DNA of 42,173 nucleotides, taken from positions 1 through 42,173 of the IMG/VR virus record IMGVR_UViG_3300046167_000693, one strand, 5' to 3'. The stretch's first letter is position 1. Each line of letters begins with the position of its first letter. The DNA is from a virus. Both the position numbers and the translations under genes were made by a program. The notes under the pieces were generated by a model. The model was not told the DNA's origin, made no database searches, and saw nothing but the letters and a program-made list of their open reading frames with translations. Shown in pieces: positions 9,198-20,057 of the stretch.

Positions 9198-9451
9198 TCT
9201 ACAAGTACAATATCAGCAAGTTTTAAAACATAATATAGTTTGTCATTAAATTCTATACCGTGTCCGGCAACTTTATCGTAATGTACTATATCATTTTCAT
9301 TAAGGTTTTCTACTAGATTGCCAGCAGATATAACTTTACCTTTTAAATACCTAACGTCTTTATTTTGATCTTCAGTAAGTTCTAAGCCTCCAACTTTTTT
9401 TGGTGCTTCTTTTATTTTTTCTATGACTACGTAGTAATTAATTGCTTTCAT
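9194..9451 (-). CDS. groES: GroES-like co-chaperonin, 85 aa
   Basis: The protein has the Cpn10 layout: strand NYYVVIEKIKE, mobile-loop region KVGGLELTEDQNKDVRYLKGKVISAG, then ENDIVHYDKVAGHGIEFNDKLYYVLKLADIVLV. This matches the GroES pattern KGKVVAVG…GD.V.Y….G..i…g..Y.il.e.DIL. Length is slightly below the usual ~95 residues. The mobile loop (KVGGLEL) supplies the hydrophobic tripeptide that docks on GroEL. The start lies 14 nt inside the end of groEL, so the pair is translated from one transcript. The order groEL then groES is the reverse of the usual bacterial operon. Confidence 0.85.
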   Translation of the reverse strand: MKAINYYVVIEKIKEAPKKVGGLELTEDQNKDVRYLKGKVISAGNLVENLNENDIVHYDKVAGHGIEFNDKLYYVLKLADIVLVE

Positions 9452-11000
9452 CTAATCGAATATTATTAATTACACAATCTGCAGAAAAAATAGTATTAAC
9501 AACACTTACTGCATTTTTAAGAGCTGTTTTAGTTACAAGAACAGGATCAATAACACCTTCTTTAATCATATCAACAACTTCTCCGTTGATTACATTTATT
9601 CCTTTACCTATGTGTCCAGATTCTTGATATTCTAAATTTGCATTTTCAAGTATAGTAGCGTATGGTGATTTTATTGCTTCAAGCAAAATAGCTTCACCAT
9701 CACTTTCAGGTCTTATATTATATGAAGCATCTAATAGTGCAACACCACCGCCTGGAACAATACCTTCTTGTAATGCTGCTTTAGTAGCATATATTGCATC
9801 CTCAACTCTATCTTTCTTTTCTTTTAACTCAACTTTTGAATTAGCACCAACTTTTATAATAGCAACGTATCCATTTAACATTGCTAATCTTTGTTGTAGC
9901 TTTTTCTTAAAGTAAGGGTTCTTTTCTTCTTTTATTTTGTTTTCAACTTTTTCTATTCTTTCATTTAGAATAGGACCTTGATCCATTATAGTTAAGACAG
10001 TGTTTTTATCGTCTGTAACAGACTTTATTGCTTGCCCTAATATATCAGGTTGAATTAAATCTAAATCATCCCCTAACTCTTCGTTTATTACCTTTGCTCC
10101 GGTAAGAATCGCAAGATCTTCAGTTGTGTCCTGTTTAGTAGGCCCGAATCCAGGTAAGTCAATCACATTGACTTTTATATTGCCTTTAACTTTATTTGCT
10201 AGCAATGCTGCTAATGGCTGCTGTTCTACGGTCGCTACAATAAGCAGACTTCTTTTTTCTTTGATTACAAACTCTAGTACATTCTGAATTTTACGAATGT
10301 TGGGGATTGGAGAAGAAACTATCATTACGTACGGGTTATCTAGTTCAGCTTTTCCTTTATCCTTATCTGTTACAAAGTATGGCGATTTGAGTCCGCAATC
10401 TATTTGTGTGCCTTCAACAAACTCAACGTTTGTTTTTTCGGTCTCAGACTCTTCCATAAGGACCACTCCGTCCTTACCCACTTTCGAATATGCTTGCGAT
10501 ATAATCTTTCCGAGGCTTTTATCGTTATTACAACTAATTGAACTGACATTTTCTAGCATGTCTCCTTTAACGTCCACCGCTTTATCAGTAAGTTCTTTAT
10601 TAACTTTTTCTAATCCCGTTTCTATCCCCTGCTTTATATCTCTTATATTGTTTTTGTCTTTTGCTTTATTAGCTAAATTCAAAAGCGAATGAGCAAGGAC
10701 GGTAGCTGTAGTAGTACCGTCACCTGCTTCTTTCACTGTGTTTTTGGCAGCCTCTTTTATAAGGGTTGCTCCCATATTTTCGACCGGGTCAATTAAGACT
10801 ACGCTTTCCGCAACGGTTACTCCGTCTTTTGTTATCACCGGTCTTCCGAGAGCGTCCTCGTAAATTACGCATTTACCAGAAGCGCCGAGGGTTGATTTAA
10901 CTGCTTTAGTTAATTTATCAACACCTGCCATTATTTTTGTTCTAGCATCTGTTCCGAAGGACAGATCCTTTACTATCTCACTTGGGTTATTATATTCCAT
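9438..11000 (-). CDS. groEL: GroEL-type chaperonin, 520 aa
   Basis: Full-length group I chaperonin. Nucleotide-binding and catalytic signatures are present: VITKDGVTVAE (Asp equivalent to E. coli D52), AGDGTTTATVL at about residues 92-102 (D87 equivalent), and VEDAIYATKAALQEGIVPGGG (D398 equivalent). The apical region has the expected segments LDNPYVMIVSS, PLAALLANK and GFGPTKQDTTEDLAILTGA. It lacks the GGM-repeat tail of cellular GroEL and ends IRLDESN. Cellular GroEL folds proteins in an ATP-driven double ring. In a phage it probably folds virion or fibre proteins, consistent with its place in the late operon. It is too divergent in places to be simple host contamination and is flanked by phage genes. 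Confidence 0.95.
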   Translation of the reverse strand: MEYNNPSEIVKDLSFGTDARTKIMAGVDKLTKAVKSTLGASGKCVIYEDALGRPVITKDGVTVAESVVLIDPVENMGATLIKEAAKNTVKEAGDGTTTATVLAHSLLNLANKAKDKNNIRDIKQGIETGLEKVNKELTDKAVDVKGDMLENVSSISCNNDKSLGKIISQAYSKVGKDGVVLMEESETEKTNVEFVEGTQIDCGLKSPYFVTDKDKGKAELDNPYVMIVSSPIPNIRKIQNVLEFVIKEKRSLLIVATVEQQPLAALLANKVKGNIKVNVIDLPGFGPTKQDTTEDLAILTGAKVINEELGDDLDLIQPDILGQAIKSVTDDKNTVLTIMDQGPILNERIEKVENKIKEEKNPYFKKKLQQRLAMLNGYVAIIKVGANSKVELKEKKDRVEDAIYATKAALQEGIVPGGGVALLDASYNIRPESDGEAILLEAIKSPYATILENANLEYQESGHIGKGINVINGEVVDMIKEGVIDPVLVTKTALKNAVSVVNTIFSADCVINNIRLDESN

Positions 11001-19278: not shown

Positions 19279-19308
19279 ATACGAACTCAATTGGATAATA
19301 TATTTGTA
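19277..19308 (+). promoter_or_regulatory. Early promoter element, copy 5
   Basis: AAATACGAA, 7 nt, GGATAATATATTTGTA. This copy contains TATATTTG, an exact match to the Bacteroidota -7 consensus TAnnTTTG. The downstream ATG (19308) abuts the element. If TAATAT is the -10, the transcript would begin at the A of the ATG (leaderless). Confidence 0.65.
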
Positions 19309-19499
19309 TGAAAAAATGTAAATGTAAAAATATAATACCAATCGGAAGAGTAAAACTAGGTTACAACACTTGTATTAATTGCAGTACAACTCAACAATAC
19401 AGTTACGTACCTATAATTGCAAACAAACAAGTACTCGAGGTACAAATTGTATCTCAAGAAGTAAGTGCTGCGGTGCATAAATCGTGGCGAAGAAAGTAA
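19308..19499 (+). CDS. Zinc-ribbon-like early protein, 63 aa
   Basis: Two Cys pairs, C.C near residues 4-6 (MKKCKCKNI) and CINC near residue 22-25 (YNTCINCSTTQQ), fit a small zinc ribbon. The C-terminal part (NKQVLEVQIVSQEVSAAVHK) is a probable helix ending in SWRRK. Directly at promoter copy 5; it is the last protein gene before the RNA segment. A DNA- or protein-binding adaptor is plausible, but the function is unknown. Confidence 0.5.
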   Translation: MKKCKCKNIIPIGRVKLGYNTCINCSTTQQYSYVPIIANKQVLEVQIVSQEVSAAVHKSWRRK

Positions 19500-19784
19500 C
19501 AGAGTCAGACGAGTAGCTTAATTAGGCGTGTATGTGGCGACGACTGTCGACGGACATATGTGATCATACGGAAGTGTATTACACGCACATAAGTGAATAG
19601 CTGGCAAAGTGAGAAATAGGAGACAATTTAAGAGCTGAGACCATTTGTCACACTAACTCACTTGAGAGACGGCGGCATACAGGTCACGTTAGGTAGATCG
19701 GTACATTGTACCAGTACGAAACAGAAATTGTGGATAAATGATAATACTAGTTAGCTACCTGTCCACAACTGGTGTCTCTCATAT
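19500..19784 (+). ncRNA. Structured non-coding RNA candidate upstream of initiator tRNA
   Basis: A 285-base stretch with stops in all three forward frames and visibly higher G+C than neighbouring genes. Pairings seen: 7 bp 19526-19532 with 19580-19586 (GCGTGTA/TACACGC), enclosing CGAC/GTCG (19538-19549) and TATG/CATA (19557-19568); a second domain closed by a perfect 8-bp helix 19663-19670 with 19774-19781 (TGAGAGAC/GTCTCTCA), with ACAGGT/ACCTGT inside (19679-19684, 19757-19762) and a GGTAC/GTACC hairpin at 19700-19712. The second domain ends 3 nt before the tRNA, so both could be cut from one transcript. It does not match tmRNA, RNase P or 6S RNA by eye. Confidence 0.55.
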
Positions 19785-19857
19785 TGCGGGGTAGAGCAGA
19801 GGTTAGCTCGTTGGGCTCATAACCCAAAGGCCGGAGGTTCGAATCCTTCTCCCGCAA
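19785..19857 (+). tRNA. Initiator-type tRNA-Met (anticodon CAT)
   Basis: Full cloverleaf: acceptor TGCGGGG/TCCCGCA with discriminator A; D stem GAGC/GCTC (A11-U24 pair); anticodon stem TTGGG/CCCAA with loop CTCATAA; variable AGGCC; T arm GGAGG, TTCGAAT, CCTTC. Three consecutive G-C pairs (29-31 with 39-41), A11-U24 and the loop CTCATAA are identity marks of bacterial initiator tRNA, and it resembles E. coli tRNA-fMet along its length. Differences: position 1 is U opposite A72, where E. coli has C1·A72, and the 3' end is ACTA, so CCA must be added. Not the elongator type. Confidence 0.9.
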
Positions 19858-19860
19858 CTA

Positions 19861-20024: not shown

Positions 20025-20057
20025 AAACACGAATACAATTGGATAATATAAATGTAA
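20025..20057 (+). promoter_or_regulatory. Early promoter element, copy 6
   Basis: AAACACGAA, 7 nt, GGATAATATAAATGTAA, preceded by ATACAAACT as in copies 3 and 4. Lies 18 nt before the start at 20076. It is the last copy; the long gene string beyond it has no further obvious copy. Confidence 0.65.

What the first reader, a model, noticed from the sequence alone, without database searches (positions are those of the whole stretch)
19500..19784. Structured non-coding RNA candidate directly upstream of an initiator tRNA
A gene-free, G+C-rich 285 nt holds several compensating helices, including a perfect 8-bp closing stem (19663-19670 with 19774-19781) ending 3 nt before the tRNA and a 7-bp stem 19526-19532 with 19580-19586. 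It is not recognisable as tmRNA, RNase P, 6S or a group I intron by eye. A phage RNA processed together with an initiator tRNA would be new.
Basis: partly seen in the sequence, partly recalled or inferred. Interest (0 to 1): 0.78.

Follow-up and report, generated by a model that had tools for sequence, protein, structure and literature searches.

The report
Shuffled, nested phage RNA modules
The stretch before the phage's initiator-tRNA gene encodes a real structured RNA made from four of at least thirteen interchangeable RNA building blocks that related marine phages plug into one another in many combinations; it matches no known RNA family and its function is not yet known.

Summary
Relatives show that it is not one RNA but a string of separate modules: C[B], then A, then H, then tRNA-Met. 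In about 65 non-redundant arrays from marine Bacteroidota-type phage contigs, at least 13 conserved modules recur. They are nested in one another in at least 42 combinations, with 74 nested pairs and no genuine crossing. No module occurs twice in an array. Compensatory changes are strong (C: 175 double-change cells against 60 in shuffles), H contains a covarying pseudoknot, and the G-U to A-C ratio (126:16) shows that the plus strand acts as RNA. Phages with about 90-98% identical flanks carry different module combinations. Relatives also carry tmRNA-type tRNA-like domains lacking the messenger part, with an almost invariant G3:U70, used as shells for the modules. The window's modules match no Rfam family; the C core was found in none of 84,980 genomes. 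Best reading: an accessory RNA toolkit, each module an independent RNA effector or decoy, possibly aimed at host translation or defence. Structure and modularity are near certain; function is inference.

The parts
19288..19308 (+). phage promoter-like motif CAATTGGATAATATATTTGTA just before the upstream ORF
   Evidence: 5 copies on the + strand in the window, 0.05 expected; similar repeats before other genes of relatives. Promoter role inferred.
19308..19499 (+). 63-aa zinc-ribbon-like ORF (CKC...CINC, ends HKSWRRK); arrays often start 3-20 nt after its stop codon
   Evidence: no Pfam or PHROG match above cut-off
19504..19605 (+). module C (outer stem GTCA/TGGC; core GACGAGTAGCTTAATTAG 19508-19525 and ACATAAGTGAATAGC 19587-19601; AGUA...GAA bulged-G/loop-E-like signature)
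   Evidence: 57 distinct relatives: 91.9% of cells paired, 175 double-change cells vs 59.7 +/- 6.9 in shuffles; core C-G to G-C switch in 6
   Evidence: same module found inside C, A, D, K or G in relatives; inside A in the near relative L002
19607..19663 (+). module A (outer stem AAGTGAG/CTCACTT; internal loop AAATAGGA / ACACTAA; inner stem GACAA/TTGTC)
   Evidence: 20 distinct relatives: 25 double-change cells vs 8.7 in shuffles; z = -2.38
19663..19781 (+). module H: closing stem P1 19663-19671/19773-19781; pseudoknot P2 19679-19683/19758-19762 crossing P3 19728-19733/19763-19768; P4 19688-19691/19752-19755; variable hairpin 19692-19717
   Evidence: 12 distinct relatives, 95.7% paired, 17 double-change cells vs 5.6; P2 ACAGG/CCTGT to ACTGG/CCAGT, P3 TGTGG/CCACA to TGTAG/CTACA or AGCGG/CCGCA; z = -3.29
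19785..19858 (+). tRNA-Met(CAT), initiator-like, followed by ACTA rather than ACCA
   Evidence: ARAGORN; Rfam RF00005, 67.2 bits
19861..20016 (+). 51-aa ORF (MKYPNAKKHFYV...), last gene before the next promoter-like motif at 20036-20056
   Evidence: start region conserved in several relatives

Best explanation
The region encodes part of a modular RNA array. Shown: at least 13 self-contained RNA modules exist, each defined by a conserved internal loop, junction, pseudoknot or tRNA-like fold closed by a freely varying helix. They are swapped between phages and plugged into one another's apical ends (in the window C[B]-A-H, then tRNA-Met), always keeping proper RNA nesting and never repeating a module. 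Inferred: the array is transcribed from the phage promoter at about 19288 with the 63-aa ORF, the tRNA and the 51-aa ORF, and freed at the tRNA 5' end by RNase P. Inferred: each module is an independent RNA effector, a binding site or decoy for one host factor, so a phage carries one copy of each module useful against its host, and nesting packs them into compact nuclease-resistant rods. The tRNA-like module G (alanine-type acceptor, no anticodon, no messenger) and the tRNA suggest that at least some modules act on translation, ribosome rescue, or defences that attack them.
For: Covariation in C, H, A and G far above shuffles and slid controls. Nesting 74 against 1 crossing, the one being a pattern artefact. 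No repeated module in 65 arrays against about 21 expected by a crude independent draw; the C core is single-copy in 26 of the 27 contigs that have it, and the exception has its two copies at the two contig ends. Same flanks, different arrays: L036 vs L037 (flanks 93-98%) is F[C[A[D[B]]]-E] against C[B]; L036 and L041 share a 97-nt D[B] cassette with 2 differences, directly in C in one and inside A inside C in the other; window vs L002 (ligase 98%) is C[B]-A-H against A[B]-H. The tRNA-like module matches tmRNA at 64.7 bits over 82 nt and occurs in about 20 of 30 contigs. Plus-strand RNA: G-U 126 against A-C 16. Presence/absence in 42 combinations resembles accessory effectors rather than one fixed machine.
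Against: No transcript, binding partner or phenotype is known. Arrays sit just after stop codons, which also fits a 3'-end mRNA-stabilising role. The single-copy rule could come from recombination deleting repeats. C is near-universal in the sampled arrays, partly because it was a search probe, which could also mean a core scaffold. Module C[B] alone is not unusually stable (z = -0.93). The window itself has no tRNA-like module G. Host and defence targets are unknown.
Confidence: 0.45

Rival explanations
1. Cis-acting elements: the modules form exonuclease-resistant structures after stop codons that protect or separate phage mRNAs, and any stable module will do, which is why they are interchangeable.
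For: Arrays start within about 20 nt of a stop codon in most cases, behind several different genes, inside an operon between two promoter-like motifs; no terminator found.
Against: Core loops are almost invariant over dozens of phages, more than stability needs; no module is ever repeated; simple hairpins would suffice; arrays sit in one or two slots, not after most genes.
Confidence: 0.2
2. A single functional RNA (like GOLLD or ROOL) that forms an RNA-only assembly, with a tolerant architecture in which modules are peripheral extensions.
For: Large structured phage RNAs of unknown function near tRNAs are known to assemble into cages (PMC12286853); loop-E-like, pseudoknot and tetraloop elements are typical tertiary contacts.
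Against: No module is universal (L002 lacks C), order and nesting are unconstrained, and 42 combinations occur in 65 arrays; no fixed core of that size and no Rfam match to GOLLD or ROOL.
Confidence: 0.12
3. Selfish or mobile hairpin cassettes: the modules are DNA or RNA elements that insert into each other's loops without benefit to the phage.
For: Insertion of whole hairpins into hairpins, promiscuous hosts, same cassette in different positions.
Against: No coding capacity, only one copy of each type per array, confined to one or two slots, loops conserved and the RNA strand selected; mobile elements usually multiply and scatter.
Confidence: 0.1
4. Translation-specific toolkit: tRNA-Met, the tmRNA-like domain and the other modules all act on the ribosome, for example occupying SmpB, alanyl-tRNA synthetase or EF-Tu to block trans-translation of phage messages.
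For: tmRNA-type fold with G3:U70 in 23 of 24 distinct domains while pairs 4 and 5 vary, nearly always A73, no anticodon, no tag frame.
Against: Only module G has recognisable translation ancestry; about a quarter of sampled contigs and the window lack it.
Confidence: 0.13

Closest known systems
GOLLD and ROOL RNAs (phage/prophage, near tRNA genes)
   Same: Large structured noncoding RNAs of phages, often beside tRNA genes, function unknown; GOLLD env-38 lies downstream of a Met-tRNA (PMC12286853).
   Different: Those have a large fixed core (ROOL env-120 659 nt, many GOLLD over 800 nt) with Rfam models; here no Rfam match, short independent modules, free order and nesting, no universal core.
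tmRNA (RF00023), tRNA-like domain only
   Same: Module G of relatives: acceptor stem with G3:U70, A73, D-loop with GG and no D stem, T arm; 64.7 bits in L029.
   Different: No messenger region, tag frame or tmRNA pseudoknots; the body is replaced by a short hairpin or by nested modules A, B, D; the window itself has none.
tRNA-like structures of plant RNA viruses
   Same: A viral RNA that copies the acceptor half of tRNA (from general knowledge, not tested).
   Different: DNA phage, internal operon position, tmRNA ancestry, modular guests.
RNA-based counter-defence (e.g. RNA anti-CRISPRs, ToxI-like decoys)
   Same: Would be short accessory phage RNAs that act by mimicry (proposed analogy only).
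   Different: Similarity to CRISPR repeats or ToxI repeats was not tested; many unrelated modules in one transcript.

Membership tests
tmRNA (window RNA) | match to RF00023 / tRNA-like domain | tested here: not met
   only tRNA found in the window region
tmRNA (module G of relatives) | tRNA-like domain with G3:U70 and A73 | tested here: met
   64.7 bits over the cut-off of 47 in L029; 36 bits in L009, L028 and L036 (below cut-off); G3:U70 in 23 of 24 distinct domains
tmRNA (module G of relatives) | messenger domain with tag frame and pseudoknots | tested here: not met
   about 300 model positions deleted; 82-nt gene in L029
GOLLD / ROOL | match to the Rfam models, large fixed core | tested here: not met
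   no match in the window or 12 relatives; no module is universal
RNase P, 6S, group I/II intron or any other Rfam family | covariance-model match | tested here: not met
   at gathering score; up to E = 10
initiator tRNA (19785-19858) | three G-C pairs in the anticodon stem and purine 11:pyrimidine 24 | tested here: met
   sequence read
initiator tRNA (19785-19858) | mismatch at 1:72 | tested here: not met
   U1-A72 pair
structured functional RNA | compensatory base changes in homologues | tested here: met
structured functional RNA | transcript present during infection | not testable with these tools
   no expression data

The most novel reading that the evidence does not exclude
A combinatorial RNA effector system: phages assemble, by hairpin-in-hairpin exchange, a personal set of nested RNA modules, each disabling a different host factor (including a tmRNA-like alanine acceptor without messenger), so that RNA domains are shuffled like accessory counter-defence genes.
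Probability: 0.35. Interest if true: 0.95.

Novelty: categorically new. Interest (0 to 1): 0.86.

Why it matters
Domain shuffling is routine in proteins but is hardly documented for natural noncoding RNA, and I know of no system where RNA domains are exchanged by nesting one hairpin inside another. If confirmed, these phages give a natural library of portable RNA motifs with known boundaries, a direct test of whether RNA modules work as independent parts, and a likely new class of phage RNAs acting on the host. The messenger-less tmRNA domains make a specific question testable at once: do phages carry RNA mimics that interfere with ribosome rescue?

Tried and rejected
Known Rfam families: rejected, no matches other than tRNA in the window and tmRNA-type domains in relatives. 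BLAST of the region against phage records: the best-listed matches all lie on the tRNA, so no isolate carrying the array was found in that collection. Host search: the 19-base C core and the phage ligase gave no match in 84,980 genomes, so the host rests on distant protein similarity to Cellulophaga and Flavobacterium phages. The ARAGORN tmRNA call in L007 with tag ERTEVYYIC was rejected as a tag: the frame lies in nested modules, although the tRNA-like ends are real. The A-core scan of viral contigs gave mostly chance matches. The single crossing module pair (L084r) comes from a variable-length B pattern starting one base too early. Four second copies of A were chance matches by inspection. 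Energy-based folding alone was judged too weak for C[B]. Literature searches found nothing matching, in open-licence papers only.

Full report
Check of the observation. The interval 19500-19784 has no ORF of 60 aa or more on either strand, lies between the stop codon of a 63-aa ORF and a tRNA-Met gene, and has G+C 0.43 against 0.34 for the window. The 285 nt fold at -77.6 kcal/mol, 2.2 sd better than dinucleotide shuffles. Rfam gives no family for it, even at E = 10; only the neighbouring tRNA matches above its cut-off.

Finding relatives. The phage ligase next door brought 42 related viral contigs. A 20-mer from the region brought 4 more. Scans with conserved pieces found later brought the total to about 340 loci, many of them chance hits that carry no second module. 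Window proteins resemble Cellulophaga and Flavobacterium phage proteins at about 40-50% identity, so a marine Bacteroidota host is likely but not shown.

What the relatives show. The intergenic slot holds different RNAs made from the same parts. I name thirteen modules A-M. Most are two-sided: a 5' piece and a 3' piece that close a helix, with room for any hairpin between. The window reads C[B]-A-H-tRNA. Others read G[A[D[B]]] (L007), C-H-G[A[B]] (L008), F[C[D]-E] (L009), F[C[A[D[B]]]-E] (L036), A[B]-C[D] (L004), C[A]-H (L045). A mechanical parse of 65 non-redundant arrays gives 74 nested pairs, 162 side-by-side pairs and one crossing pair, which is a pattern artefact. That is what RNA folding demands and what random shuffling of half-modules would not give. 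Forty-two combinations occur. No module occurs twice in one array, against about 21 arrays expected from an independent draw (crude null, and the sampling used C, A, B, F, H and L as probes, so module frequencies are biased).

Covariation. For C, 57 distinct sequences (of 68 found) give 91.9% paired cells and 175 double-change cells against 59.7 in shuffles; sliding the partner by 1-3 columns drops pairing to 22-45%. The outer stem takes the forms GCTA/TAGC, GTTA/TAAC, GTCA/TGGC, GCAG/CTGC and GCCG/CGGC, and the core helix switches C-G to G-C in six sequences. Its invariant AGUA opposite GAA has the signature of a bulged-G (loop E) motif, an inference from sequence. H contains a pseudoknot, P2 crossing P3, both with compensatory changes. 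A and the tRNA-like module G also covary. Over the four alignments G-U cells number 126 and A-C cells 16, so the selected molecule is the plus-strand RNA, although module A taken alone shows no such bias (6 against 8).

Module exchange. L036 and L037 are 93-98% identical on either side of the array, but between them lie about 255 and 105 nt that share only a 21-base C core. L036 and L041 share a 97-nt D[B] cassette with two differences; in L041 it sits directly in C, in L036 inside A inside C. Such a change at the DNA level needs either two coordinated insertions or replacement of one hairpin's tip by another hairpin; I infer the second. The window and L002 (ligase 98% identical) have B inside C and inside A respectively.

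The tRNA-like module. G has an acceptor stem GGGnnnG, a D-loop with GG and no D stem, a helix in place of the anticodon arm, and a T arm. In L029 it is 82 nt long and matches tmRNA at 64.7 bits, above the family cut-off, with the messenger part missing. Other copies score about 36 bits, below the cut-off of 47. Pair 3:70 is G-U in 23 of 24 distinct domains while pairs 4 and 5 vary; nearly all have A73. G3:U70 is the alanine identity element of tRNA-Ala and tmRNA (established knowledge). About 20 of 30 contigs have one such domain with a substantial score. The window has none.

Setting. Arrays begin mostly within about 20 nt of a stop codon, in more than half the cases that of the zinc-ribbon-like HKSWRRK ORF, but also after several other genes. 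A promoter-like motif occurs five times in the window, at 19288 and 20036 around this unit. No terminator-like site lies in it.

Mechanism. Shown: structure, strand, modularity, nesting, exchange. Inferred: co-transcription, release by RNase P at the tRNA, and independent action of each module. The pattern of presence, absence and single copy resembles accessory counter-defence genes, so I favour independent RNA effectors or decoys. Cis protection of mRNA, an RNA-only assembly and selfish hairpins remain possible.

Novelty. No Rfam family and no paper found describes it, and BLAST of the region against the phage records listed only matches to the tRNA. Absence from the open-licence literature is not proof. 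Naming it categorically new rests on the nested, interchangeable architecture rather than on being one more orphan RNA.

Noticed in passing
L029 231-312, L009 3989-4091, L028 3584-3712, L036 3785-3869: Messenger-less tmRNA tRNA-like domains in phages, almost always with G3:U70; Rfam's default filters missed them in a whole-locus search and only the sensitive mode found them.
   Followed up: yes
window 17103, 17613, 18034, 19288, 20036: Repeated promoter-like motif (CNATTGGATAATATAANTGTA) on the plus strand, 5 copies against 0.05 expected; similar to Bacteroidota-type promoters.
   Followed up: partly
window 19785-19860 and relatives: tRNA-Met and the tRNA-like domains are followed by ACTA instead of ACCA, a shared tail conserved over many phages; purpose unknown.
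   Followed up: no
L028 3367-3462, L024 3588-3668: Module M is a second, more degenerate tRNA-like element (T arm plus ACTAG/CTAGT acceptor) that gave no Rfam match in L028.
   Followed up: partly
L031 3823-3900: Module C holding a minihelix of acceptor stem plus T arm (GTGGTG...CACCAC) as its guest, so tRNA-like parts can also be guests.
   Followed up: no
window 9438-11000: Phage-encoded GroEL-like chaperonin (phrog_5725, E 1.3e-137).
   Followed up: no
window 19308-19499: 63-aa zinc-ribbon-like protein with a basic tail, often directly upstream of the arrays; could bind the RNA.
   Followed up: partly
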